From assembly GCA_947383005.1 (NCBI GenBank), contig CANDBT010000016.1, positions 30,869 through 94,868 on the forward strand: a DNA stretch of 64,000 bases, read 5' to 3'. This DNA is from an uncultured bacterium. Its GTDB lineage: Bacteria > Bacillota > Clostridia > Lachnospirales > Lachnospiraceae. Shown piece after piece: positions 11,768 through 43,996 of the stretch. The notes under the pieces were generated by a model, which saw only the letters and a program-made list of their open reading frames with translations, made no database searches and was not told the DNA's origin. The position numbers were made by a program, and so were the translations under genes. Numbering within the stretch: the first letter of the stretch is position 1; every line of letters starts with the position of its first letter.

Positions 11768-12931
11768 ATGAATGTTGCGTTTATTCCCGTTAGAGGTGGG
11801 AGTAAATCCATACCTCTGAAAAATATCAAAATGATTAACGGAAAGCCGCTGGTTTACTGGACTGTAAAAGCCGCGTGCAGATGCAGGTACATAGATAAGG
11901 TGTATATAGCTACCGATAGTAATGAGATTAGGAAGGTTGCCGAAGGGTTTAAGACAGGTACAGAGGCAGAACAGTTTACTAAGGCTATGGTTATTGATCG
12001 TTCTGCAGAATCAGCATCGGACAATGCCTCTACGGAATTTGCGATGTTGGAATTTGCAAACAAATATAAGTTTGATAATATAGCGCTTATCCAAGCAACA
12101 TCACCATTACTGCAAGCTTCTGACCTTAATCGTGGATTTGAAGCATTTGGCAGGGAGGGAGTGGACAGCGTTCTTTCGGTTGTCAGACAAAAACGCTTCC
12201 GGTGGGAGAATGATGAAAACGGCTTTGCTCATCCAGCAAATTATGATGTCTTTCATCGCTTGCGCCGTCAGGAATTCGAGGGTTATTTGGTAGAGAATGG
12301 AGCTTTCTATATCACCTCAAAAGCAGATCTTATTAGGTGCCAAAATCGCGTTTCTGGAAATATAATAGCTGTAGAGATGAATGAAGATACATTTTTTGAA
12401 ATTGATGAACCAAATGATTGGGTGATTGTTGAAAGTCTTATGAAGAAAAATAATCATATTGCGGATTCAAATATTGCTGATATTAAGTTATTTCTTACGG
12501 ATTGTGATGGCTGCCTTACTGATGGAGGCATGTATTATTCAGAATATGGCGATGAAATGAAAAAATTCAATACGCGGGACGGCATGGGATTCGCATTATT
12601 AAAAGAAAAAGGAATTTTAACAGGAATCATCACAAGTGAAAACAATAATTTAAACCAACGGCGTGCAGATAAGTTAAGGCTGGATATTTTGGAAGCGGGA
12701 TGCAAAGATAAGTTGGCAGCAATCAGGTGTATCTGTGCGGACAGAGGGATTTCTCTTGAAAATGTATGCTATATCGGCGATGATATCAATGATATTGAAG
12801 CGCTCAAGGCTGTCGGTTTTGGGTGCTGCCCATCAGATGCAATGCCGGAGATAAAGAATGTGGTTAATTATATAACAAAAGCAAAAGGGGGTGAAGGAGT
12901 TATCCGAGAGGTGGTTGATAGGTTGATATAA
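11768..12931 (+). CDS. Fused CMP-ulosonate synthetase (NeuA) and KdsC-like HAD phosphatase
   Basis: A 387-residue two-domain protein. Residues 1-~230 are a cytidylyltransferase: AFIPVRGGSKSIPLKNIKM, KVYIATDSNEI, ALIQATSPLLQASDL and FFEIDEPNDW. This domain activates a nonulosonic acid with CTP. Residues ~238-387 are a KdsC-type HAD domain with DCDGCLTDGGMYYSEYGDE (nucleophile Asp near 244), TRDGMGFALLKEKGI and CYIGDDINDIEALK. It presumably removes a phosphate from the ulosonate phosphate before activation. The ATG at 11768 is chosen because GGAAAGGAA lies just before it; the frame extends to 11735 without family sequence. One polypeptide carrying both steps is less common than separate NeuA and phosphatase genes. 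It closes the polysaccharide operon. Confidence 0.85.
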   Translation: MNVAFIPVRGGSKSIPLKNIKMINGKPLVYWTVKAACRCRYIDKVYIATDSNEIRKVAEGFKTGTEAEQFTKAMVIDRSAESASDNASTEFAMLEFANKYKFDNIALIQATSPLLQASDLNRGFEAFGREGVDSVLSVVRQKRFRWENDENGFAHPANYDVFHRLRRQEFEGYLVENGAFYITSKADLIRCQNRVSGNIIAVEMNEDTFFEIDEPNDWVIVESLMKKNNHIADSNIADIKLFLTDCDGCLTDGGMYYSEYGDEMKKFNTRDGMGFALLKEKGILTGIITSENNNLNQRRADKLRLDILEAGCKDKLAAIRCICADRGISLENVCYIGDDINDIEALKAVGFGCCPSDAMPEIKNVVNYITKAKGGEGVIREVVDRLI

Positions 12932-13007
12932 GCAAATATGCTTCTCATATTTCCAAAGAATCACACAATCATTTGGCAAATCATATATTTCTTTTTTGCG
13001 TTTTTCT

Positions 13008-13180
13008 CATGGATCAGGTAGCCTTGGATCCGTCCCCCAGAAACTCAAACGGATGGCATCCTCTACGGCTCCTTCCATGTTTGCCATGGTTTTTGTTGGC
13101 AGTTTCAGGCCATATCTTGCAAATTCCCTTTTCTATGTGCTAACGGCTATCTACTGTTTGTCATCTAACTGAATTGTCAT
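13008..13180 (-). pseudogene. Short unidentified coding remnant
   Basis: On the minus strand a frame with two in-frame stops reads FARYGLKLPTKTMANMEG followed by AVEDAIRLSFWGTDPRLPD. The codon pattern looks protein-like but I do not recognise the family. It has no intact start or Shine-Dalgarno sequence. The rest of 12932-13217 shows no other structure. Confidence 0.25.
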
Positions 13181-13219
13181 CTATTTTCCCCTATTCGATT
13201 GCTTTTTTGTAAAAAAGTA

Positions 13220-13248
13220 TTGAAATACAGACTAAGTTATGGTATTAT
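13220..13248 (+). promoter_or_regulatory. Sigma-70-type promoter of the metal-resistance unit
   Basis: TTGAAA (13220-13225) and TATTAT (13243-13248) are separated by 17 bp, upstream of the ArsR-family gene. An operator-like palindrome directly follows the -10 box. Confidence 0.65.
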
Positions 13249-13276
13249 AAACATATGAATAAATGCTCATATGTTT
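13249..13276 (+). promoter_or_regulatory. ArsR/SmtB-type operator
   Basis: AAACATATGA and TCATATGTTT form a perfect 10-bp inverted repeat around an 8-nt spacer. Its position over the expected transcription start, and the ATATGA/TCATAT half-sites, fit operators of the CadC/CzrA/SmtB group. The regulator encoded at 13386 would repress here and be released by metal, giving autoregulation. Confidence 0.65.
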
Positions 13277-13385
13277 ATATGAATAGTTATTGAAAACTTG
13301 CGGACCGCGTGGGCGAGCAGGGAGTTTTCTTCTGACCGGCTGCCGGATTTCGCAAGTGCATGTACGTACGAAATGGAGGGAATTT

Positions 13386-13792: not shown

Positions 13793-13872
13793 CAGTTCAG
13801 ATAGGCATGCGCGTTCACCGCACTGACCGTATAACATCGTGCCCTTAGGGCAAAACGTAGCGGGCGCAGGCA
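13793..13872. repeat. Diverged copy of the hairpin-rich GTAA-end repeat family
   Basis: CAGTTCAGATAGG, then GCGTTCACCGC and CTGACCGTA, matches the left part of the complete elements at 39668 and 16532. A ~20-nt insert containing GCCCTTAGGGC interrupts the match, which then resumes in AAAACGTAGCGGGCGCAGGC. The outer GTAA end and target duplication are not visible, so this is a degraded copy between the regulator and chaperone genes. Confidence 0.6.
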
Positions 13873-16531: not shown

Positions 16532-16657
16532 GTAACAGATAACCCTTGAACTGTTACGGCATACGGCCGTTTGAAATCGCTTCGCGATGGGCCGTATGCC
16601 CGCAGCCACCATGTTTTCGTACGGTCAGCGCGGTAAACGCGCAGACCTATCTGTTAC
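16532..16657. mobile_element. Complete 126-bp MITE-like element with 8-bp target duplication
   Basis: Ends GTAACAGATA and TATCTGTTAC are perfect inverted repeats. The 8-bp duplication CATTAATT is at 16524-16531 and 16658-16665. Reverse-complemented, it aligns along its whole length with the element inside cas1 (39668-39801): shared GGTCTGCGCG, CGCTGACCGTACGAAAAC and a GGCC-type stem around ATCGC-GCGAT. It encodes nothing. GTAA ends with 8-bp duplications resemble IS66-type insertions, which could supply the transposase in trans. Confidence 0.85.
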
Positions 16658-18373: not shown

Positions 18374-19417
18374 TTAATAATGCACGACATCGCCTGCCTG
18401 GCAAATCTTGGCAATAACAACGGCAGCTTCTTCGCTTTTGAAATAGTCAAGCGTAGTGGATGGCACAAGCTTTTCCAATGCAGGGAAATCTCTTTTTTGG
18501 AGAAGCTGGCGTACGGTGGAAGCGCTGATTGGCTTGTCCATTGCTTGTTTGCGGGGGACAATGATGCAGTCAATCCCGGATAGAGGAAGACGGGAAGACA
18601 ACATTTGATTGTAGATGCCCGTTACCTGGCTGGCAGGTTCTTCGCCTACATATCGGCGTGTGACAGCCAATGCTTCTGCAATCTTGGTAAATATGATCAG
18701 ATCCAATTTGGCATGTCCTTTGATTACTGACTCATCATCCTTTAAAAAATAACTGGGAAAGGTAGCATTACTGATGATATACGGCCCGCTGTCATGGCAG
18801 ATTACATTGGGCAGGTGGGCGGTGCCGGCAAGAACGAGTTTTTTCCGGACGGAAAAAGGTACCAGGCTGGCATCTTCACTGACAATAAACAAATGAAGGG
18901 TATCACATTCGGAGGCAGCTTTTTCTGCCAGATATTGATGTCCCAAGGTGAAGGGATTGGCATTCATAACCAATGCGGCAGATAATCCGTTGGTTTTTGT
19001 TTTGGCAAGGCTGGCGAGGTATTCCTGGAAACCGTTTTTGCGGTTTTCCATAAAAACAAGAGTGCCGTCAACCCGCGCTATTTCGTAAAACCCCAAGTCC
19101 TGGAAGAATTTTGCCGAATTTATTTTTGTGTAGAGGAAAAGATGGATATTCCCTCTCTGATATTGGACATCTATCAAATGGGTAATAACCTGGTTTAAAA
19201 GCCCTTCTCCCTGATGTGCGCTGCTGACGGCGAAGCAGCGCAGAGTATTGGCAAAACAGCTTCCGGTAGCGATGATTTGATAATTTTCATCGTACATGGC
19301 ACAGATATAATCCAGATGGGCGTCTCTTTGGATGCCTTCTTGTTTTAAGAGGGCGTCAACTTGGGAGAGGCTGCGTTTGTCTGAAGGGCGGATCGGTGAA
19401 ATCGTATATTCCGGCAT
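18374..19417 (-). CDS. citC: [Citrate (pro-3S)-lyase] ligase
   Basis: A 347-residue protein with the two CitC domains. The N-terminal GNAT-like part has VSSAHQGEGLLNQVITHLID and FFQDLGFYEIARVDG. The C-terminal nucleotidyltransferase part has NANPFTLGHQYLAEKAA with the HxGH-type motif, and ISASTVRQLL near the end. CitC acetylates the prosthetic group of the citrate lyase acyl-carrier protein, using ATP and acetate, to activate the enzyme. It lies 40 nt downstream of citXG in the same direction. The lyase subunit genes citD, citE and citF are not in the window, so they must be elsewhere, or these are leftovers. Confidence 0.9.
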   Translation of the reverse strand: MPEYTISPIRPSDKRSLSQVDALLKQEGIQRDAHLDYICAMYDENYQIIATGSCFANTLRCFAVSSAHQGEGLLNQVITHLIDVQYQRGNIHLFLYTKINSAKFFQDLGFYEIARVDGTLVFMENRKNGFQEYLASLAKTKTNGLSAALVMNANPFTLGHQYLAEKAASECDTLHLFIVSEDASLVPFSVRKKLVLAGTAHLPNVICHDSGPYIISNATFPSYFLKDDESVIKGHAKLDLIIFTKIAEALAVTRRYVGEEPASQVTGIYNQMLSSRLPLSGIDCIIVPRKQAMDKPISASTVRQLLQKRDFPALEKLVPSTTLDYFKSEEAAVVIAKICQAGDVVHY

Positions 19418-19457
19418 ATTACCTTTCCTTTCTTTTCAGTCTTCGTTTTCAATCTTT

Positions 19458-20813
19458 TTAGTCTTCATTTTCTAAAAAATACAACAGGTAGCAGGCGGCC
19501 AGCAAGTCGGCGCTTCCGCCGGGAGAAAGATTTTTTTTGATAAATTCAGTATCCAGGTGCCGTAAAACCTGCCTGTCCGGGAAGGGGTGCCGGGCCAGCA
19601 GCATTTTTATTTTGGCGGCTGTTTCCTGCTGGGTGGCAAGGCTGCTCCGGGCGATGAGATTGGTGTCGGTTGCGGCGGCCATTAGCGCGAGGAGGGCGCC
19701 GCAGCCGGCGTCATTGATGTCAAGCCCCCGGGCAATTCCGGCTTTTAACGCGGGGAGCCCTGCGTCGCGGACTGCGGGAAGCCCTTCTTCCATTTGCCCG
19801 CGGATTCCAGAAATATGATAGCGGAGATATAATTTCTGGCCTGTGGTAACGGCGTTTTTTTCCGTAAGGCTGGCAAAATCGGCGGCAACCAGCCCTTTGG
19901 CCATGGCGGAGCATTCTTTTAAGATAATATCGGGATATTTCCATTGTTCCCTGCTCAGCCGGCCGATGGCGGCGCAGAGGACTCCCATGGAAAAGACAGC
20001 GCCTTTATGGGTATTGATTCCTTTCGTTGCCGAAAACATATCGGCTTCCGCTTTTCTGCCGGCGGAGCGGATTTGCAGGAAAGTCTGCCTGGCCGGTTGG
20101 CTGGCGGTCTGCCTTCCGATTTGCGTACATCGTTCAAAATAAGGCCATAGGGCGCTGGCGCTGTCCATAAAAGTAAAGATATCCATATCCTTATGGCTGC
20201 CGTTGTTTTCCCGGTCTACCAGTCCCGGTTTTGGCGTGGTACAGACTTCATACAGAAGGGCGCGGCATGCCAGACTGGCAATATGGGAGGCGTCTTCCTT
20301 TTCTATGGCTTGGTTTAATATTTCCGTGGTTTTTTCCTGGAGCTGTTCTACTGTGTGAGTCCTGCTGCGGGCACATTCCTTTGCCGGTTTACCGCATATC
20401 AGGCACGTGCGGGGCATAAGGCCGATTTCGGAACGGTCTGTTTTCTCTCCGGATGGTTTCAGGACGTCCATGTCGAACAGCCTGCCAAGCTCGGAACCAT
20501 CCTCAACGGAACAGGCAATTTCTTTGATAAGAAGCAGATCTCCGTCAATAAGATAGTAGGCTTCATTCCCCGTAGGCTCGTTGATTTCGGTAAAGCAGGC
20601 TGGCCGGATTTTTAAAGAATCCAACTGTTCTTTTAAATAGCGTTTTCCCAGGTTAAAACCATCCCGGATTAGCGGGCTGTTTTTTATCGGTCCGGCAATA
20701 TTCATCGTGAAGCATATCATGGGGATCTGATAGCGGGCAAGCAGTTCTTGCTGACGGAAAGCCCTCCGTTCCCGCGCATCGAGCATTTCCGGTAATGTTA
20801 CATGGTGTTCCAT
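19458..20813 (-). CDS. citXG: CitX-CitG fusion: apo-citrate lyase prosthetic-group transferase and triphosphoribosyl-dephospho-CoA synthase
   Basis: A 451-residue fusion. Residues 1-~165 are CitX-like (ARERRAFRQQELLARYQIP, then MNIAGPIKNSPLIRDGF), which attaches the prosthetic group to the carrier protein. From ~175 onward is CitG (CTTPKPGLVDRENNGSHKDM, then GINTHKGAVFSMG and DINDAGCGALLALM), which makes triphosphoribosyl-dephospho-CoA from ATP and dephospho-CoA. GAAAGGAAAT precedes the ATG on the minus strand. It is followed by citC. Both maturation genes are GC-richer than the surrounding AT-rich genes. Without citDEF nearby, regulation and current use are unclear. Confidence 0.88.
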   Translation of the reverse strand: MEHHVTLPEMLDARERRAFRQQELLARYQIPMICFTMNIAGPIKNSPLIRDGFNLGKRYLKEQLDSLKIRPACFTEINEPTGNEAYYLIDGDLLLIKEIACSVEDGSELGRLFDMDVLKPSGEKTDRSEIGLMPRTCLICGKPAKECARSRTHTVEQLQEKTTEILNQAIEKEDASHIASLACRALLYEVCTTPKPGLVDRENNGSHKDMDIFTFMDSASALWPYFERCTQIGRQTASQPARQTFLQIRSAGRKAEADMFSATKGINTHKGAVFSMGVLCAAIGRLSREQWKYPDIILKECSAMAKGLVAADFASLTEKNAVTTGQKLYLRYHISGIRGQMEEGLPAVRDAGLPALKAGIARGLDINDAGCGALLALMAAATDTNLIARSSLATQQETAAKIKMLLARHPFPDRQVLRHLDTEFIKKNLSPGGSADLLAACYLLYFLENED

Positions 20814-20944: not shown

Positions 20945-21095
20945 GTAACAGTTCAGACGGGTATCTTCTTGCCCGTCTACGCCGGGCAAGAAGCATCGGA
21001 TGTCCATCCGATGTGGAATTTGGCATGAATTTTGGCTTACAAGCAAGCTTGACACCGAAAATTCGTGCCAAATTCCCCGCCGTCTGAACTGTTAC
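20945..21095. mobile_element. Complete 151-bp MITE-like element, second subtype
   Basis: Ends GTAACAGTTCAGACGG and CCGTCTGAACTGTTAC form a 16-bp perfect inverted repeat. Flanking octamers TTATAATA (20937-20944) and CTATAATA (21096-21103) match at 7 of 8 positions, a target duplication that has drifted by one base. Inside are strong hairpins: CTTCTTGCCCG with CGGGCAAGAAG, CATCGGATG with CATCCGATG, and TTTGGCA with TGCCAAA. It shares the GTAACAGTTCAGA end with the cas1 element but has a different core. Together with flanking sequence it fills the 20814-21191 gap; nothing else is seen there. Confidence 0.82.
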
Positions 21096-32830: not shown

Positions 32831-33574
32831 ATGCTTGCGGAATTGAGGATGGAATTGGAGGCGGACAGCCCGGCATTGGGCTGTTATCAGTCTTCCAATA
32901 TGCAGGGGGTATTGATGGAGACCATAGACAGCGCTTATGCGGAAGACTTGCACAGACAGGGGCTTAACCCATATAGCCAATATATGATAGGTGGGCGGAC
33001 GAAAGAATGGGTAGTGAAAACTCTTACCAAGGAAGCATACCAATACATGATAAAGCCGCTGATGGAAGAGGATTTTTCCGGATTTACCATTGCAAAAAAG
33101 AATATCCAGGTAAAGATAAGCAAAAAGGAATTGAAAATTGTCAGAAAGCAGGAACTGATGGATGAATTTTACCGGGGAGGCAGTTGCCGGTATATCGATT
33201 TGGAGTTTTTGACGCCGACGGCGTTTAAAAGCAGAGGAAGGTATGTCATCATGCCGGATGTGAGATATATTTTCCAGAGCCTGATGAATAAATACAGCGC
33301 GTCATCCGATGAGTTGGAAATGTATGATGAAGAAACCTTAGAGCAGTTGGCGGGAAACAGCAGTATTGTCCGTTACCGGCTGCAAAGCGTTTTTTTCCCG
33401 TTGGAGGGAGTTAAGATTCCTTCTTTCAAAGGAGAGCTGACGATGAGAGTAGGCGGAAGCGAGACGATGGCCAGGTATGCCCGGCTGTTGGCAGGTTTTG
33501 GGGAATATTCGGGAATCGGGATAAAAACGGCGATGGGAATGGGAGGAATAAGGAGGAAAAATCATGACGGATAA
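32831..33574 (+). CDS. cas6: CRISPR pre-crRNA endoribonuclease Cas6
   Basis: A 247-residue RAMP-fold protein with the C-terminal glycine-rich loop of Cas6 (AGFGEYSGIGIKTAMGMGGI, the last ~25 residues) and YIDLEFLTPTAFKSRG in the second ferredoxin-like domain. His residues are sparse, so the catalytic residue is not obvious. It cuts the repeat RNA to leave an 8-nt 5' tag, here probably ACGGAAAC. It is the first gene of the operon and overlaps csm1 by 11 nt. The 112-bp tandem repeat lies directly upstream. Confidence 0.85.
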   Translation: MLAELRMELEADSPALGCYQSSNMQGVLMETIDSAYAEDLHRQGLNPYSQYMIGGRTKEWVVKTLTKEAYQYMIKPLMEEDFSGFTIAKKNIQVKISKKELKIVRKQELMDEFYRGGSCRYIDLEFLTPTAFKSRGRYVIMPDVRYIFQSLMNKYSASSDELEMYDEETLEQLAGNSSIVRYRLQSVFFPLEGVKIPSFKGELTMRVGGSETMARYARLLAGFGEYSGIGIKTAMGMGGIRRKNHDG

Positions 33575-35912
33575 GGAAGTAAGCCTTGTCTTGGGAGGGT
33601 TGCTCCATGATATCGGCAAAGTGATTTACAGGCAGGGGAGCGAGAGGAAAAAGCATAGCCAGATCGGCTATGAATTTCTTAAGGAACAGGTGGGTTTGAC
33701 TAATCAGGATGTATTGGATGCCGTATTATATCATCATGCTGACGGGATAAAACATGCTTCGATTGCCAGGGATTCATTGGCTTATATTGTCTATATAGCG
33801 GATAATATTGCTTCTGCCGCGGACAGGCGGAAAAATGACTCTGAGGATGCCGATTTTGAAATTTCCATGCCTTTACAAAGCGTATTTAACATTCTGAACG
33901 GAAATCATCAACATTTATTTTATGAGCCAAAGACATTGGATGAAAGGGATGCCGTCAATTATCCGATTGCGGAAAAGAAGCGTTTTGACGAACATTTTTA
34001 TGTCCGGATAAAAGAGAATCTTTTTGGCAATCTTAAGGGGATTGAATGGTCGCAGGAATATATCCATTCCTTGCTGGAGACGTTGGAGGCAAATTTATCT
34101 TATGTGCCTTCTTCGACAGCCAAAGATGAACGGGTGGATATTTCCCTGTATGACCATATGAAACTGACGGCGGCGGTTGCCGCGTGCCTTTATGGCTATT
34201 TGGAGGAAAAAGGGGTTAAGGATTACCGTGATAAACTGTTTCTTCGCGCGAAAGAATTTTATCAGGAAGAAGCTTTTCTTTTGTGTTCTATGGATATCTC
34301 CGGGATACAGGATTTTATTTATACGATCGCGAGCAAAAATGCGCTGAAAACCTTGCGGGCGCGCTCCTTTTATCTGGAAATTATGATGGAGCATATCATT
34401 GACTGTTTTCTGGAGGATCAGCATTTGACGAGGGCGAACCTGCTGTATTGCGGCGGAGGGCATTGCTATATCTTGATGGCCAACACATCGGCGGCGTTAA
34501 AAAAAGCGGAGCAATATATGGATAAGCTTAACCATTGGCTTATGGAGCAGTTTTCCATTTCTTTATACGTGGCTTTCGGATATGCGGCCTGCAGTTGCAA
34601 TACACTGAAAAATTTTCCGGAAGGCAGTTATTCCCAACTGTTTAAGAATGTCGGCGCGGCTATTTCCCGAAGGAAAAGCCACAGATATCCGGCGTCGGAT
34701 ATCCGCAGATTGAATATGCGGGAATATGGCAGCTATACGAGGGAATGCAAAGTGTGCAGACGTATCGGCAAGACAGACGATGAGGGCGCGTGCAGCGTCT
34801 GCCGGGCGATAGAAAATTTTTCGAACAATATTCTTTACAGCAGTTTTTTTACGGTTACTTTGGAAAAAAGCAGATATGCGCTTCCTTTGCCGGGAGATTA
34901 TTACCTTGTAGCGGATGACCAGGAAAGCCTGGTGAAAAAGATGCAGCAGGATGATGATTTTGTGCGGACATACAGTAAAAATAAGATGTATACAGGAAAG
35001 CATATGGCGACAAAGCTGTGGGTCGGGGATTATACCACCAAAAAGACATTTGAGGAATACGCCGCCCAGGCTCAGGGAATTGAGCGGATAGGGGTTATCC
35101 GGGCGGATGTGGATAATCTGGGACAAGCTTTTGTATCCGGGTTTGAAAATCCGGATAACCACAACCGATATGTCACTTTATCAAGAACGGCAACGCTTTC
35201 CCGGCAATTGTCACTGTTTTTTAAATATCATATCAACAAAATGCTGGCGGAAGGTTCCTTTTTCCTGGAACCGAGAGAGCAGAAATCAAGAAATGCGACG
35301 ATCGTCTATTCGGGAGGCGACGATCTGTTTATTGTCGGGGCGTGGGATGATGTGATCGGGTTGGCCATTGATATACGGAGGAATTTTGAGAAATATACCC
35401 AGGGGACGTTGACTCTTTCGGCGGGTATCGGCATATATGAACCATCCTATCCCATCAGCGCCATTGCCAGGGAAACGGCTGGTTTGGAAGATGAATCGAA
35501 GAAATATCCGGGAAAAAACGCGGTGACTTTGCTGCCGGAAGATAGCGAACCGATGGCAGGAAGCTATAGCTGGGGAGCGTTTGAGCAAAAGGTTTTGCAG
35601 GAAAAATACCAGGCAATCAAAGAATTTTTTTCCGTATCCGAGGAGCGGGGAATGAGTTTTCTTTACCGTTTGCTGGAATTATTGAGAAATAAAAAAGAGA
35701 AAATTAATTTTGCCCGTTATGTCTATATTTTATCCCGTTTGGAGCCGGAAAAGGACGCGGATAAAAGCCAGAAAGACGCTTATCAGAAATTTGCGCAAAA
35801 AATGTATCAATGGATGAAAGACGAAGAAGAAAACAGGCAGTTGCGGACGGCAATCAGCCTGTATGTGTACGAAAAAAGGGCGAAGGAGATAGGGGAAGAT
35901 GAAATTGAATGA
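33564..35912 (+). CDS. csm1: Cas10/Csm1, type III-A effector large subunit with HD and cyclase domains
   Basis: A 782-residue Cas10. The HD nuclease domain has LLHDIGKVIYR (His15-Asp16). Then come a first Palm domain, a zinc finger (CKVC...CSVC, about residues 394-413) and the cyclic-oligoadenylate synthase Palm with YSGGDDLFIV (GGDD at about 583-586). A helical D4 domain ends the protein. All three functional motifs are intact, so target-RNA-stimulated DNase and cOA synthesis are both predicted. The cOA product would act on Csm6 encoded at 40441. AGGAGG inside the end of cas6 serves as ribosome site, and the gene overlaps csm2 by 14 nt. Confidence 0.93.
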   Translation: MTDKEVSLVLGGLLHDIGKVIYRQGSERKKHSQIGYEFLKEQVGLTNQDVLDAVLYHHADGIKHASIARDSLAYIVYIADNIASAADRRKNDSEDADFEISMPLQSVFNILNGNHQHLFYEPKTLDERDAVNYPIAEKKRFDEHFYVRIKENLFGNLKGIEWSQEYIHSLLETLEANLSYVPSSTAKDERVDISLYDHMKLTAAVAACLYGYLEEKGVKDYRDKLFLRAKEFYQEEAFLLCSMDISGIQDFIYTIASKNALKTLRARSFYLEIMMEHIIDCFLEDQHLTRANLLYCGGGHCYILMANTSAALKKAEQYMDKLNHWLMEQFSISLYVAFGYAACSCNTLKNFPEGSYSQLFKNVGAAISRRKSHRYPASDIRRLNMREYGSYTRECKVCRRIGKTDDEGACSVCRAIENFSNNILYSSFFTVTLEKSRYALPLPGDYYLVADDQESLVKKMQQDDDFVRTYSKNKMYTGKHMATKLWVGDYTTKKTFEEYAAQAQGIERIGVIRADVDNLGQAFVSGFENPDNHNRYVTLSRTATLSRQLSLFFKYHINKMLAEGSFFLEPREQKSRNATIVYSGGDDLFIVGAWDDVIGLAIDIRRNFEKYTQGTLTLSAGIGIYEPSYPISAIARETAGLEDESKKYPGKNAVTLLPEDSEPMAGSYSWGAFEQKVLQEKYQAIKEFFSVSEERGMSFLYRLLELLRNKKEKINFARYVYILSRLEPEKDADKSQKDAYQKFAQKMYQWMKDEEENRQLRTAISLYVYEKRAKEIGEDEIE

Positions 35913-36291
35913 GCAGAATTATGTCGATACGGCGGAACAAGTAATATTGAAACTGAAAGAGAAGAAGGGGCGGGACAATAAGCCTGTCCCCCTGGTCACC
36001 ACATCAAAACTGCGCAATCTGCTGGCGATGGCGGCGGATATTTATAATCAGATATTAAACCAGCATGAAGACCGCCTGAACGAAGACATTTGCGGCAGGA
36101 TCGAGTATTTGCGGGTGCGGTTCCTATATGAGGCAGGCCGGGAGCCGGCGGTCAGGGATTTGGTTGAAGAAGCGGGAATTATCGACTTATTAAAGCAGAT
36201 TAAGGGAAGCAAGAAACAGTATATGTTATTCAGCCGTTACATGGAAGCTTTGGTTTCTTTCCGGAAATATTACGACAGGAACGACAGTTAG
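35899..36291 (+). CDS. csm2: Csm2, small subunit of the Csm complex
   Basis: A 130-residue all-helical protein. ISRDIC-like segments are not conserved, but position, size and the pattern VTTSKLRNLLAMAADIYNQ followed by RIEYLRVRFLYEAGREPAV match Csm2. Several copies line the crRNA-target duplex as the belly filament of the complex. It overlaps the end of csm1 and precedes csm3 by 13 nt. Confidence 0.88.
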   Translation: MKLNEQNYVDTAEQVILKLKEKKGRDNKPVPLVTTSKLRNLLAMAADIYNQILNQHEDRLNEDICGRIEYLRVRFLYEAGREPAVRDLVEEAGIIDLLKQIKGSKKQYMLFSRYMEALVSFRKYYDRNDS

Positions 36292-36983: not shown

Positions 36984-37916
36984 ATGGATTACAAAATTTA
37001 CAAAATGGTGTTTCAAGGCGCCGTCCATTTGGGCAAGCAGTCATTAGAAGACGGAGAATTTACTTTTTGCGCAGATACTCTTTTTTCGGCTCTCTGCCAG
37101 GAGGCCCTGAAACTGGGCGAAGATAAACTGCAGGCTTTTTATACATATGCCAAAGAAGGGAAGCTGTTGCTGTCAGATGCTTTTCCCTATATAGGCGATA
37201 CCTATTATCTGCCGAAACCGATAAAACATTTGGATACAACAGACGGCAAGGGAGATTCCGCCGCAAAAAAAGCATGGAAAAAGCTGAGTTATATTCCGAT
37301 GGAAGCTTTGGATGAATATTTGCGGGGGGATTTTGACGTGCTGAACATGCAGGCTCCGGACATCGGCAAATTGGGGAGCTTCGAAATGAAAGTCTCGGCT
37401 TTTGTGCGGGGACAGGAGGAAACCCTTCCTTATCGTGTAGGGACTTATTATTATCATCCGGGGAACGGAATCTATCTGATTGCCCGTTATGACGAACCGC
37501 AAAAAATATTGTTGGAAGAGCTGCTGGAGAATCTTTCTTTCAGCGGAATCGGTGGGAAAAGAGCCGCAGGGATGGGGCGTTTTACGTTTTATTCCCGGAA
37601 TGTTTCTTCCCATTTGAAAAAGCGGCTGGAAGGAGAAGGGAGTACGTATATGTCTTTATCCGTGTCTTTGCCGGCGGATGAAGAATTGGAACAGGCGCTG
37701 CTGGGCGCGGAGTATTTGGTGTGCAAAAGGAGCGGGTTTGTGGCATCGGAAAACTATGCCCCGGAGCAGATGAGAAAAAAGGATTTATATGTATTAAAAG
37801 CAGGTTCCTGTTTTCGGAATAAGTATAAAGGCGACATTTATGATGTATCCGGACGGATGGGGAAACATCCGGTATACCGGTATGCAAAACCAATATTTAT
37901 AGAGGTGGGCACATGA
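36984..37916 (+). CDS. csm4: Csm4, crRNA 5'-tag binding RAMP subunit
   Basis: 310 residues with the Csm4 opening MDYKIYKMVFQGAVHLGKQS, DTLFSALCQEALKLG, and the glycine-rich loop FSGIGGKRAAGMGRF. Csm4 contacts Cas10 and holds the 5' tag of the crRNA. The stop overlaps the csm5 start as ATGA. Ribosome site GAGAGGAG lies 5-6 nt upstream of the ATG. Confidence 0.9.
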   Translation: MDYKIYKMVFQGAVHLGKQSLEDGEFTFCADTLFSALCQEALKLGEDKLQAFYTYAKEGKLLLSDAFPYIGDTYYLPKPIKHLDTTDGKGDSAAKKAWKKLSYIPMEALDEYLRGDFDVLNMQAPDIGKLGSFEMKVSAFVRGQEETLPYRVGTYYYHPGNGIYLIARYDEPQKILLEELLENLSFSGIGGKRAAGMGRFTFYSRNVSSHLKKRLEGEGSTYMSLSVSLPADEELEQALLGAEYLVCKRSGFVASENYAPEQMRKKDLYVLKAGSCFRNKYKGDIYDVSGRMGKHPVYRYAKPIFIEVGT

Positions 37917-39242: not shown

Positions 39243-39610
39243 TTAGAAATTAGAGAACCCCGTGAGGGGACGGAAACGCTTTGCTCAACGCTGTACATTG
39301 CAATCTTACCATTAGAAATTAGAGAATCCCGTGAGGGGGCGGAAATTATTTGTTATAGCATATTCAGTTTTGTTTGTCAGTTAGGTATTGGGAACCCCGC
39401 GAGGGGACGGAAACTCGGGTGTTTCTTCAGGTGTTTCATCGGGCTACTTTAGAAATTAGGAAACCCCGTAAGGGGACGGAAATGTCTCATCGGGTTCGGG
39501 TGTCTCATCGGGCTCTTTAAAAATCAAATTCCCCGCAAGGGGACGGAAGTTATAAATTGGCGATTGTTCCATCTATGTCGAAGGAAAACCTGATAACTCC
39601 GTAAGGGGAT
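39243..39610 (+). CRISPR. Short, decaying type III-A CRISPR array (five repeats plus a remnant)
   Basis: Repeat unit 35 bp: TTAGAAATTAGAGAACCCCG then TGAGGGGACGGAAAC. Positions: 39243-39277, 39312-39346, 39380-39414, 39449-39483, 39516-39550 and a poor sixth at about 39585-39610. Spacers are 33-35 bp. The repeat core CCCCG-nnAA/GAGG-GG hairpin is kept, but 5' halves and ends drift from the third repeat on (for example TTAGGTATTGGG, AAAAATCAAATTCC), a trailer-end pattern. The 3' eight bases ACGGAAAC suit a type III 5' tag, so crRNAs should read along the plus strand. Spacers 3 and 4 resemble each other. Confidence 0.9.
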
Positions 39611-39645: not shown

Positions 39646-40209
39646 ATGAGTTTACTGTATGTGAATGCTAACAGTTCAGATAGGTCTGCGCGTTCACCGC
39701 GCTGACCGTACGAAAACCTAGTGGTCGCGGGCATCCGGCCCATCGCGGAGCGATTTTTATGGCCGGATGCGTAACAGTTCAGGGGTTGTCTGAACTGTTA
39801 CTGTGAATGAAAATGGTGCGGTGATTGGTGTAGAAGCTAATCGGTGTTTTGTAAAGTACTCGGATGGCATGAAAAGAATGGTGCCGATAGAAACTTTAGA
39901 AAGCATTACCATTATGGAACATGCACAGATAACGACTCAATGTGTGCAGGAGTGCCTTAAGCGAGGGATTCCTATCACATATTTTTCAAAAGGAGGGAGT
40001 TATTTTGGAAGATTGCAGTCTACGGGACATATAAACGCGGAAAGACAGAGGAAACAGGCGGCTTTATATGATTCGGATTTTGCTGTGGAACTTTCAAGGC
40101 AGATTGTCAGCGGCAAGTTGAAAAATCAGATAGTTGTTCTCAGAAGATACGAAAAGAGTAAAGGGATAGATGTTGGTGAGCAATTAAAAATGATGAGGAT
40201 ATGTCGGGA
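39646..40209 (+). pseudogene. cas1: cas1 remnant, interrupted by a MITE and truncated by a deletion
   Basis: MSLLYVN is encoded at 39646-39666. A 134-bp element then interrupts it, and the sequence resumes at 39803 as NENGAVIGVEANRCFVKYSD and ITYFSKGGSYFGRL...GKLKNQIVVLRRYEKSKG, typical N-terminal Cas1. With the insertion, translation from the native ATG stops after 19 codons. A GTG at 39803 could restart, but the gene ends around residue 130: the catalytic Glu-His-Asp region is absent, and Cas2-like sequence follows directly. Both lesions make integrase activity impossible. GTAAGGAGAAG lies before the original ATG. Confidence 0.88.
39668..39801. mobile_element. 134-bp MITE-like element inserted in cas1
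   Basis: Terminal repeats TAACAGTTCAGA and TCTGAACTGTTA, with outer C/C (the right end reads GTAACAGTTCAGAC on the other strand). The target duplication TGTGAATG occurs at 39660-39667 and 39802-39809. Removing the element and one duplication restores an uninterrupted Cas1 N-terminus, which proves the insertion boundaries. Internal hairpins: GGTCTGCGCG with CGCTGACC, and GCATCCGGCC with GGCCGGATGC. No coding capacity. Full-length relative of the element at 16532 (opposite orientation). Confidence 0.92.
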
Positions 40210-40425
40210 AAAGTTGTCTTCTTGTCATACGGTTTCCGCATTCAGAAATCCGCTTTTGAGGCGGTGATTTCCAAGAAAAAATATAAGGAGCTTTTGGAGC
40301 GTCTCCCGTCATATACATCGGCGGAAGACAGCATACGGGTATATAAAATTATTGGAAAAGGTCAGGTCGTTTCCTTTGGAAAGCCGATGGAAAACGACGG
40401 GGAAGACGATATCATTGTCATATAA
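40201..40425 (+). pseudogene. cas2: cas2 remnant, N-terminus deleted
   Basis: The frame reads GKVVFLSYGFRIQKSAFEAV then LERLPSYTSAEDSIRVYKII and GKGQVVSFGK, the C-terminal two-thirds of Cas2 (R-I-Q-K-S-x-F-E is a family hallmark). The first ~30 residues, including the conserved N-terminal Asp, are missing because a deletion of roughly 0.8-0.9 kb joined it to the cas1 fragment near 40190-40210. The nominal ATG at 40201 is a chance start at the junction. Confidence 0.85.
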
Positions 40426-40440
40426 GGGAGGAGGACACAA

Positions 40441-41760
40441 ATGGGAAAAAAGATTCTATTCAGCCCGGTAGGCGGCACAGATCCGATAAGATATTTGAGG
40501 GATGGTTCCCTGCTTCATATTTGCCGCCACTATCGCCCGGATATCGTGTATTTGTATTTGTCTCATGAAATGATGCAGATTCACAGGCAGGATAACCGCT
40601 ACGTGGCAACAATCGAGCTGCTGGGAAAGCATTTGCATCATAATTTTGAAGTACATGTTATTGAACGGGATGCACTTATCGATGTGCAGCAATATGATAT
40701 TTTCTATCAGGATTTCCGACAGGAAATCAGGAAAATTGAAGAAAGCATGGGGGAGGAGGATGAACTGCTGCTCAATATGGCTTCCGGAACCCCAGCGATG
40801 AAAAGCGCGTTGATGGTCATGGCAACTCTGGCAGAGTACCGCTTTTTGCCGATACAGGTTTCCACTCCGCAAAAACGCATGAATTCCGAATATGAGGAGA
40901 GAAAAAATTATGAGATTGATGTGAATTGGGAGTTGGATGAGGATAACCAGGAGGAGGCGCCAAACCGGTGTACGGAGGTAAAATGCCTGCATTTAATGAC
41001 CTTGCTCAAAATCGAGATAATCAAAAAGCATCTGGCAGCTTATGACTACCGGGCGGCATTGGCAGTTGCCGAAGAAATCCGCAGGGATATCCCTGCGGAT
41101 GCGTACAGGATGCTGCAGATTGCCGATGCGAGGGTAAAATTAAGCCGGAATAAGATCCATGCATGGATGCGCGAGAAAGAGTATGACATCTATCCGATAC
41201 AGGAAAGCGGAAAACAGAAGATATTTGAATATGCCCTTGTTTTGCAGATCAAGCTCAAGCGCGAGGAATATGCGGATTTCATCCGCGGCATTACGCCGAT
41301 TGTGGTGGATTTGCTGGAAAATATATTGAAGAATCAATGTAATATTGTTTTGGCGGATTACTGCAAATCCGACAAAGATAAAATACTTAAGTGGGATGAA
41401 AAAAAGCTGCAGAGATCCGGTTTGAAGAAGCTGTTGGATGAAGAATATCAGGGTGGATTTCGCTGTGGCTCGGTTTATTCCGGGCATCTTGCCTGTTTGA
41501 TCCGCCGGAAATGCAGCGACAGGGTTTTAAGGCAGAAGGTGGAGGATATCGTGTATGCGGAAAGCAGGGCGCGGAATATGGCGGCTCACGAGATTGTGTC
41601 GGTGACGGATGAATGGTTTCGGGAAAAGACGGGCAAAAGCGCAAAGGAGATCTTTTCCCTTATTCAATATTTGACCAGGAAGGCGGGGATTAACGTAAAG
41701 GATGAGGATTGGGAGTCCTACGACCGGATGAATGAGCAGATAATTTTTTATTGCCAGTAA
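40441..41760 (+). CDS. csm6: Csm6, CARF-HEPN ribonuclease activated by cyclic oligoadenylate
   Basis: A 439-residue protein. The N-terminal CARF domain has ILFSPVGGTDPIRYLRDGSL and LLLNMASGTPAMKSALMVMA, which bind cyclic oligoadenylate. The C-terminal HEPN domain carries the RX4H ribonuclease motif RNMAAH at about residues 378-383. The intact gene predicts that Cas10 signalling can trigger non-specific RNA decay. GGGAGGAGG precedes the ATG, 15 nt after the cas2 remnant. It is probably still transcribed with the csm operon or from within the array region. A terminator follows at 41801. Confidence 0.9.
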   Translation: MGKKILFSPVGGTDPIRYLRDGSLLHICRHYRPDIVYLYLSHEMMQIHRQDNRYVATIELLGKHLHHNFEVHVIERDALIDVQQYDIFYQDFRQEIRKIEESMGEEDELLLNMASGTPAMKSALMVMATLAEYRFLPIQVSTPQKRMNSEYEERKNYEIDVNWELDEDNQEEAPNRCTEVKCLHLMTLLKIEIIKKHLAAYDYRAALAVAEEIRRDIPADAYRMLQIADARVKLSRNKIHAWMREKEYDIYPIQESGKQKIFEYALVLQIKLKREEYADFIRGITPIVVDLLENILKNQCNIVLADYCKSDKDKILKWDEKKLQRSGLKKLLDEEYQGGFRCGSVYSGHLACLIRRKCSDRVLRQKVEDIVYAESRARNMAAHEIVSVTDEWFREKTGKSAKEIFSLIQYLTRKAGINVKDEDWESYDRMNEQIIFYCQ

Positions 41761-42745: not shown

Positions 42746-43036
42746 AGATAAACTTGGCCAAAGGGCAAAAATTCCCTCGCTGATTATATCCACGGGCATA
42801 CGGATTTGCCAAATGATGGGGATTTTGCAGAAATAGGGGAACCATATTGGTTTGCGGGTATAACTATGGGCGGATTGGGCGGATAAGATTATGGCGGCAT
42901 AGAATATGCTTCATTGCCGCAGGCAATTGTAAATGGGCATATGCGGTTGATGGACTTGGCGCCAAAGGCAGATTGCCGGAGCACAGGGACGGCCGCCGAC
43001 AGTACAGCAACATACGAAAATGCGGGAGGCAGTCGA
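42746..43036 (+). other. Intergenic stretch with possible coding remnant
   Basis: One frame reads DYIHGHTDLPNDGDFAEIG and EPYWFAGITMGGLGG before a stop, then DYGGIEYASLPQAIVNGH. This looks protein-like but matches no family I know and lacks start signals. No terminator or promoter is clear. GGGAGG at 43024-43029 is the ribosome site of the nuclease gene. Confidence 0.25.
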
Positions 43037-43996
43037 ATGTTTAGACAAAAGAAAGTAACACAGAAAAGGACGGGACAGAAAAAAATTATTCTGGGAATAT
43101 GGCTTCTCTTTTTACTGACAATCAGCGCTTGCGCGGAAATTCCGCTTACCCCGCTGGCGCCGTCAGCTTCTTCGGCGGCTCCAACCGGCGGACAGGCCGG
43201 GCAGGGAGAGAATGACCCGGAAAGTTATCAGCCGGGGGCTTATGATGGCGAAGCCAGTTTTGTGGTCAATAATAACGTACCTTATTTTACCGAAAAGGAG
43301 ATTACGACAGAAATTTTTGAAACGTACAGCGATCTGGACAGTTTAGGACGCTGTGGAACGGCGTTTGCCAATGTATGCCGGGAGATTATGCCGACGGAGG
43401 AGCGGGGAAATATCAGCAATATCAGACCGAGCGGCTGGCATACGGCAAAATATGATATGCTGGCCAACCGGTATTTGTATAATCGATGCCATCTTATCGG
43501 TTATCAGCTTGCCGGTGAAAATGCCAATAAGAAAAATTTGATTACCGGGACCCGGTATCTCAATGTAGAAGGAATGCTTCCCTGGGAGAATATGGTGGCT
43601 GATTATGTGAGAGAAACGGGAAATCATGTGCTGTATCGTGTTACTCCTTATTTCGAAGAAGAAAATCTGGTAGCTTATGGCGTACAGATGGAGGCTTATT
43701 CCGTGGAAGATCAGGGGGCGGGGGTTTGTTTTAATGTGTATTGTTATAATGTACAGCCGGGAATTGTGATTGATTACAGAACGGGGGAGAGCAAGCTCGA
43801 TGAAGCCTGGCTGGCGGGGGAAGCCCAGCCGGGAGAAGAAATCGAGTATGTGCTGAATGTCAGTACGATGCGTTTCCATCTTCCGTCCTGTACCAGTGTC
43901 TCAAGTATGGAGGAAAAAAATAAGGAAATATTTTCCGGCAGCCGTGAAGCGTTGATTGCAGATGGATATATACCATGCAGCCGCTGCAATCCATAG
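43037..43996 (+). CDS. Secreted DNA/RNA non-specific endonuclease lipoprotein
   Basis: 319 residues from the ATG at 43037 (GGGAGG 7 nt upstream; the longer frame to 42914 lacks a signal peptide). The signal peptide ends at a lipobox-like LTISAC. The nuclease core has RYLYNRCHLIGYQLAGENAN, where the His corresponds to the DRGH-type catalytic His, then NLITGTRYLNVEGM. The C-terminal RFHLPSCTSV...GYIPCSRCNP is an Ada-like Cys motif common in surface nucleases and likely binds metal. The enzyme degrades extracellular nucleic acid, for nutrient scavenging or DNA uptake. Confidence 0.83.
   Translation: MFRQKKVTQKRTGQKKIILGIWLLFLLTISACAEIPLTPLAPSASSAAPTGGQAGQGENDPESYQPGAYDGEASFVVNNNVPYFTEKEITTEIFETYSDLDSLGRCGTAFANVCREIMPTEERGNISNIRPSGWHTAKYDMLANRYLYNRCHLIGYQLAGENANKKNLITGTRYLNVEGMLPWENMVADYVRETGNHVLYRVTPYFEEENLVAYGVQMEAYSVEDQGAGVCFNVYCYNVQPGIVIDYRTGESKLDEAWLAGEAQPGEEIEYVLNVSTMRFHLPSCTSVSSMEEKNKEIFSGSREALIADGYIPCSRCNP

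What the first reader, a model, noticed from the sequence alone, without database searches (positions are those of the whole stretch)
39646..40425. CRISPR adaptation module killed twice: MITE insertion plus a cas1-cas2 deletion fusion
Seen directly: a 134-bp element with an 8-bp duplication splits cas1 after seven codons, so translation ends after 19. Separately, the gene is joined near residue 130 to the C-terminal part of cas2, removing the Cas1 active site and the Cas2 N-terminus. cas6, csm1-5 and csm6 are all intact with their catalytic motifs. This is a memory-frozen type III-A system: it could still defend and signal but cannot add spacers unless another Cas1-Cas2 acts in trans. Maintenance of the effector genes suggests selection on a fixed memory or another role.
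Basis: partly seen in the sequence, partly recalled or inferred. Interest (0 to 1): 0.75.

Follow-up and report, generated by a model that had tools for sequence, protein, structure and literature searches.

The report
CRISPR immune memory that stopped updating
A gut bacterium's type III-A CRISPR defence has lost the two genes that record new infections but kept the genes that read old records; related bacteria show the same loss repeatedly, and their leftover records look like a fixed guide set.

Summary
A 134-bp MITE (39668-39801, 8-bp duplication) splits cas1 after seven codons; an out-of-frame deletion of roughly 0.7 kb joins Cas1 near residue 149 (not 130) to the last ~65 residues of Cas2, removing Cas1's catalytic half and the Cas2 N-terminus. 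cas6, csm1-5 and csm6 are intact. A same-genus relative has intact cas1-cas2 here. The cell also carries two I-C systems with full Cas1 and near-identical repeats, but the III-A array has no two identical repeats, so nothing seems to have extended it for long.

It is not a one-off. Of 50 related loci that could be judged, 16 lack full-length Cas1. All 11 arrays with strongly diverged repeats fall among those 16, none among 34 with intact Cas1; a tree needs at least 8 changes. In those arrays the repeats' 5' part diverges while the hairpin's 3' arm and crRNA handle are kept. Two sister loci with resembling spacers have csm dN/dS 0.06-0.16. Best reading: adaptation is lost repeatedly and the array persists as a fixed guide set. 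Loss of cas1-cas2 in type III is known; this repeat signature was not found in ten paper searches. That the guides work in this cell is inferred.

The parts
32831..33574 (+). cas6, intact
   Evidence: PF10040, TIGR01877
33564..35912 (+). csm1/cas10, intact, HD and GGDD present
   Evidence: TIGR02578; motifs
35899..36291 (+). csm2, intact
   Evidence: PF03750
36305..36973 (+). csm3, intact
   Evidence: TIGR02582; alignment A1
36984..37916 (+). csm4, intact
   Evidence: TIGR01903
37913..39022 (+). csm5, intact
   Evidence: TIGR01899
39242..39616 (+). CRISPR array, six repeats (starts 39242, 39311, 39379, 39448, 39515, 39581; last one degenerate), five spacers of 30-33 nt
39646..39667 (+). cas1, first seven codons before the element
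39668..39801 (.). MITE with 12-bp inverted ends; duplications at 39660-39667 and 39802-39809
39803..40234 (+). cas1 remnant (N-terminal domain only)
   Evidence: PF01867 positions 4-152 of 283; alignment
40228..40425 (+). cas2 remnant (C-terminal ~65 residues, other frame)
   Evidence: PF09827 positions 23-66 of 74; alignment
40441..41760 (+). csm6 (CARF-HEPN), intact
   Evidence: TIGR02672; PF09659, PF22208

Best explanation
[quoted passage not shown] The array has received no new spacer since. The effector genes and the working core of the repeats were kept, so the locus would still make crRNAs from a fixed set of about five spacers, bind matching transcripts, and signal to Csm6 by cyclic oligoadenylates (mechanism from established knowledge of III-A): fixed defence in place of adaptive memory. 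Shown: the lesions, intact effector genes, an array without identical repeats, no trace of extension by the I-C modules, and the same association on several lineages. Inferred: that crRNAs are made and used in this cell, and that selection rather than recency preserves the effectors.
For: Lesions. Full-length Cas1 at the same operon position in relatives, including one of the same genus. No two repeats identical, first two differ at 3 of 36; 16 of 16 other III-A arrays have at least half exact copies. Survey: strongly diverged 5' parts of repeats in 11 of 16 loci without full-length Cas1, 0 of 34 with it, Fisher p 1.2e-7. First two repeats differ by at most 1 in 31 of 31 arrays of intact loci, by 2 or more in 12 of 18 others. 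Independent pairs on the tree: 7.6 to 8.6 on average the same way, 0 the other way, median p 0.004-0.008. In the 11 diverged arrays the 5' 13 nt differ by 0.35 on average, the 3' stem arm plus handle by 0.10, p 0.0005; window 0.24 and 0.10. Window effectors: 10 of 488 conserved sites changed, the lowest rate of the 14 genomes listed. L143/L149: dN/dS 0.06-0.16 in seven genes, with two resembling spacers in the same order.
Against: The Cas1 and Cas2 remnants show no clear decay (3 of 40 conserved sites changed, 8th of 14 genomes; no stop), so the loss may be recent and the effectors intact for that reason. The repeat clock assumes that the first two repeats were once identical and that no deletion brought an old repeat to the leader. 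Repeats are often degenerate at the far end of normal arrays, so the window array could be such a tail. No spacer target found. Five of 16 broken loci have homogeneous arrays (L118, L132, L144, L163, L166), as has the cas1-less locus of G038 (24 repeats). The class 'diverged' was set after seeing the data, and L142 and L151 in it are mixed; without them the pairs test still gives p 0.008. No expression data.
Confidence: 0.7

Rival explanations
1. General decay: adaptation went first and the rest is simply not yet broken; nothing selects the effectors.
For: The Cas1-Cas2 remnants are not visibly more decayed than intact homologues. No spacer target is known.
Against: With the repeat clock (3 changes in 72 sites, 0.042) about 13 stops would be expected in the seven effector genes if neutral, P of none 2e-6; but at 0.005 it is 0.21. 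Sister frozen loci have csm dN/dS 0.06-0.16. Stem arm and handle of diverged repeats are conserved.
Confidence: 0.18
2. Adaptation in trans: the two I-C Cas1-Cas2 modules still feed the III-A array.
For: Two I-C systems with full Cas1 and nearly identical repeats lie in the genome. Supply in trans between types is demonstrated for VI-B by II-C (PMC8092290, passages).
Against: A new spacer would copy the first repeat; the first two differ at 3 of 36 positions. The exact III-A repeat core occurs only at this array. The I-C repeats are unlike it.
Confidence: 0.04
3. The fixed guides serve the host in another way than defence (regulation of host genes, or guarding the locus as in CreTA).
For: Antisense Shine-Dalgarno-plus-ATG spacers: 8 of 62 in diverged arrays, 28 of 583 in intact loci, p 0.016. 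Repeat degeneration resembles CreTA (PMC9458426).
Against: No convincing match of the window's array in its own genome, nor of the L143 and L149 arrays in theirs. Intact loci show the antisense excess too (28 antisense, 2 sense), as expected if type III spacers must match mRNA. None of the four window spacers scanned fits the motif.
Confidence: 0.06
4. Assembly artefact.
For: Draft genome in 136 contigs; repeats can mislead assemblers.
Against: The element differs by 11% or more from every other copy listed in the genome and has a clean target duplication; the deletion is separate from it.
Confidence: 0.02

Closest known systems
Type III-A system of the Mycobacterium tuberculosis complex
   Same: III-A effectors reported as functional, little or no spacer acquisition, frequent cas1 mutations, IS-mediated rearrangement, spacers without known phage match (PMC13334790, passages).
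   Different: There cas1 and cas2 are generally present; here they are physically destroyed and the repeats have diverged individually (near-identity of the M. tuberculosis repeats is recalled, not checked).
Type III loci without cas1-cas2 in general
   Same: 191 of 389 type III loci lack cas1 and cas2 in one survey; 27 with CRISPR have none in the genome (PMC5294841, passages).
   Different: The passages seen do not link the loss to repeat divergence. Here remnants remain visible and the array signature was measured.
CreTA and other degenerated ectopic repeats
   Same: Repeats freed from adaptation degenerate, lose nucleotides needed for integration and resist recombination (PMC9458426, abstract and passages).
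   Different: CreTA is one or two ectopic repeats with a toxin; here it is the main array of a type III-A locus.
   Same: Operon order cas6-csm1-5-array-cas1-cas2-csm6.
   Different: Full-length cas1 and cas2; 19 repeats, 14 exact.

Membership tests
Type III-A (Csm) CRISPR-Cas | Csm1/Cas10 with Csm2-Csm5 in one operon | tested here: met
   TIGR02578, TIGR01870, TIGR02582, TIGR01903, TIGR01899 over their cut-offs
Type III-A (Csm) CRISPR-Cas | Cas10 HD and GGDD; Csm6 CARF-HEPN | tested here: met
Type III-A (Csm) CRISPR-Cas | Array with hairpin repeats and a GAAAC-like handle | tested here: met
   (16 of 16 stem pairs in the four repeats counted); the sixth repeat has lost the handle
CRISPR adaptation module | Full-length Cas1 with its catalytic residues (labels recalled) and full-length Cas2 | tested here: not met
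MITE | Short element, inverted ends, target duplication, many copies | tested here: met
MITE | Parent transposon with the same ends | not tested
   Not searched
Frozen type III-A loci (grouping proposed here) | No full-length cas1 at the locus, full effectors, repeats diverged in the 5' part with stem arm and handle kept | tested here: met
Frozen type III-A loci (grouping proposed here) | crRNAs made and used | not testable with these tools
   Needs RNA and interference data
CreTA | Toxin RNA or gene repressed by the degenerate-repeat RNA | not tested
   No toxin was sought

The most novel reading that the evidence does not exclude
Type III-A systems repeatedly turn from adaptive into fixed, germline-like immunity. 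Once cas1-cas2 is lost, the part of the repeat that only integration needs is released from constraint, the Cas6 hairpin arm and crRNA handle stay under selection, the repeats diverge until spacers can hardly be lost by recombination, and the fixed guide set with Csm-Csm6 is kept across species splits. The window is one of several independent cases (at least 8 changes on the tree).
Probability: 0.45. Interest if true: 0.78.

Novelty: new variant of a known kind. Interest (0 to 1): 0.52.

Why it matters
Whether a type III system can live on without learning has been open: loci without cas1-cas2 are common, but trans supply, decay and fixed function are hard to tell apart. The divergence of an array's own repeats is a readable mark of how long it has gone without new spacers. 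Here it separates loci that look trans-supplied or recently broken from loci that look frozen, and shows which parts of a repeat stay constrained once integration no longer matters. If the guides of frozen loci still work, CRISPR can revert to innate, inherited immunity, and the retained spacers point to threats worth remembering over species-level time.

Tried and rejected
Spacer targets: blastn of the array against phages and plasmids gave only short, weak matches; exact 24-mer and 22-mer of spacers 1 and 2 in IMG/VR, 0 hits; a wobble pattern of spacer 4 gave 6 contigs, each matching only 22 of 31 letters. The own genome: the array itself and two weak matches.

Host-regulation idea: L143 and L149 spacers read antisense to Shine-Dalgarno plus ATG. 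Enrichment is weak, and searches of those two genomes gave AT-rich matches near chance. Not adopted.

Genome-wide scan with the Cas1 remnant: 51 pattern stretches, no relative by tblastn. Promoter and terminator scan: nothing usable. Literature: ten searches turned up no paper that links cas1 loss to repeat divergence in type III; only listings and the cited passages were seen.

Rows dropped: of 81 loci (80 best of 212 relatives found, plus the window) 31 were left out because the contig ended too soon to judge. L147 and L169, 'partial' because of a short Cas2 match, were counted as Cas1-full. L131, with two repeats, was counted as not diverged. L132 and L144 have Cas1 in two overlapping frames and were counted as broken; a run without them and without L142 and L151 gives the same result. 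In one search L096 and L098 are not arrays of this family and were not counted; the script failed on the window array, which was measured. G344 and G158 were dropped. The repeat finder scores the repeat core, which favours conserved cores; 80 repeats were found and 4 empty slots seen in the 11 arrays. With a different measure (adjacent repeats, whole 21-nt core) L141 shows no lower divergence in the core than in the 5' part.

Full report
What is there. The window lies in a 4.99-Mb draft genome of 136 contigs. The locus reads cas6, csm1-5, a CRISPR array, broken cas1-cas2, csm6, all on the plus strand. The seven effector genes match curated families over nearly full length, have no stops, and hold the HD and GGDD of Csm1 and an R-x6-H of Csm6. 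The element at 39668-39801 has 12-bp inverted ends, an 8-bp duplication and seven other long copies in the genome at 80-89% identity. The cas1-cas2 junction lies near 40234: Cas1 stops before the GYEG stretch that all 13 aligned relatives have in some form (GYEG, GFEG or GCEG), and Cas2 resumes at YGFRIQKSAFEA. The two remnants are in different frames.

Intact relatives. In the 99 relatives searched, csm6 of this kind occurs in 7, own included, and in only one other same-genus genome. Orthologues in the genus are about 50-70% identical, so no close relative dates the loss.

Is the cell blind? No. Contigs C12 and C82 carry I-C systems with cas3, cas5c, cas8c, cas7c and cas1c, with neighbouring cas2-like and cas4-like frames. 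Their arrays hold 28 of 29, 17 of 17 and 11 of 13 exact repeats. The III-A repeat core was found only at this locus.

The array as a clock. The window's five inner repeats differ from each other at 3-14 of 36 positions. New spacers copy the first repeat, so repeats 1 and 2 would be identical after a recent acquisition; they differ at 3 positions. In 16 of 16 other III-A arrays (two of them possibly halves of one array in G030) at least half of the repeats are exact. One of these, in G038, has no cas1 between csm5 and csm6 and yet 17 of 24 exact repeats, which fits supply in trans or recent loss.

Survey. A Csm3 profile found 212 relatives in genome contigs, of which the best 80 were kept; with the window, 50 of 81 could be judged. 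By a Cas1-Cas2 profile search, 34 have full-length Cas1 and 16 do not: some have none (L116, L118, L127, L136, L141, L143, L149, L151, L175), some a remnant (L111, L142, L163, L166, window), two have Cas1 in two frames (L132, L144). L163 shows an independent deletion of the same kind: Cas1 98-173 and Cas2 13-105 in one frame. Arrays of loci not intact are shorter (median 7 against 14 repeats) and more diverged in the 5' part (0.19 against 0.02, p 1.5e-5; classes). Strong divergence (above 0.125) occurs in 11 of 16 and 0 of 34. On a quick tree of Csm2-5, Cas1 state changes at least 13 times and divergence 9 times (8 in the strict set); it goes with Cas1 loss in every independent pair in which it differs. 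The tree cannot tell gain from loss, and its support is SH-aLRT only.

What is kept in diverged repeats. Averaged over ten arrays, pairwise difference is 0.48 in the 5' 15 nt, 0.13 in the 5' stem arm, 0.25 in the loop, 0.01 in the 3' stem arm and 0.15 in the handle (ungapped). With gaps allowed and eleven arrays: 0.35 for the 5' 13 nt against 0.10 for 3' arm plus handle, p 0.0005. The finder favours conserved cores, but only 4 empty slots stand against 80 found repeats. Stem pairs are mostly kept, but shuffling arms between repeats does as well, so there is no evidence of compensatory change.

Are effectors selected? In the window 10 of 488 sites conserved elsewhere are changed, the lowest rate of 14 genomes listed; the Cas1-Cas2 remnants show 3 of 40. 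If 0.042 changes per site have passed since the last acquisition, 13 stops would be expected without selection and 0 are seen; with 0.005 the absence is unremarkable. L143 and L149 are sister loci without local cas1 and with diverged arrays. Two of three L143 spacers resemble L149 spacers in the same order (shuffle p 0.0065 and 0.0045, not corrected for 21 comparisons). Their seven genes have dN/dS 0.06-0.16 at dS 0.6-0.95. If they froze before splitting, the effectors have been selected since. L143's genome has a full Cas1 elsewhere, L149's none found.

Genomes without any Cas1. Of 15 genomes with broken or doubtful loci, 3 gave no Cas1 match at all (L141, L149, L151), and those of L163 and L142 only the local pieces; their completeness is not given.

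Verdict. The finding is real. The locus is an instance of a known kind (type III without adaptation) with unusually legible lesions. The newer point is the recurring repeat signature, which makes 'frozen' testable. Known parallels: the M. tuberculosis complex (PMC13334790), cas1-less type III loci (PMC5294841), supply in trans (PMC8092290), degenerated CreTA repeats (PMC9458426), all seen as passages only, plus the abstract of the last.

Noticed in passing
G000:C12 (L035:3739-13895) and G000:C82 (L036): Two separate I-C CRISPR-Cas systems with long, nearly identical arrays in the same genome.
   Followed up: partly
window 16536-16653, 13793-13831: Further full or partial copies of the same MITE family in the window (converted from contig coordinates).
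   Followed up: no
window 20946-21094: A pair of inverted TAACAGTTCAGA ends 149 bp apart, not listed among the matches to the MITE interior; perhaps another element with the same ends.
   Followed up: no
L163, csm5 end +1783 to +2461: Independent cas1-cas2 deletion in Pseudobutyrivibrio sp. UBA3626: Cas1 98-173 and Cas2 13-105 lie in one frame, a possible real fusion.
   Followed up: partly
L039 (G033), 12342-13349: cas1 with one in-frame stop at codon 126, cas2 and csm6 open, no csm1-5 found within 12 kb upstream.
   Followed up: no
L037 (G050), near 19266-19646: A cas6 fragment with two stops directly upstream of csm6 at a contig end.
   Followed up: no
window spacers 39415-39447 and 39484-39514: Spacers 3 and 4 share GGTGTYTCATCGGGCT-like repeats, as if taken from one repetitive gene.
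   Followed up: partly
arrays of 34 intact loci: Spacers antisense to Shine-Dalgarno plus ATG outnumber sense ones 28 to 2 of 583, fitting a preference of type III for mRNA matches.
   Followed up: partly
window 42914-43996: DNA/RNA non-specific endonuclease (PF13930) with a weak Ada-type metal-binding tail near the CRISPR locus.
   Followed up: no
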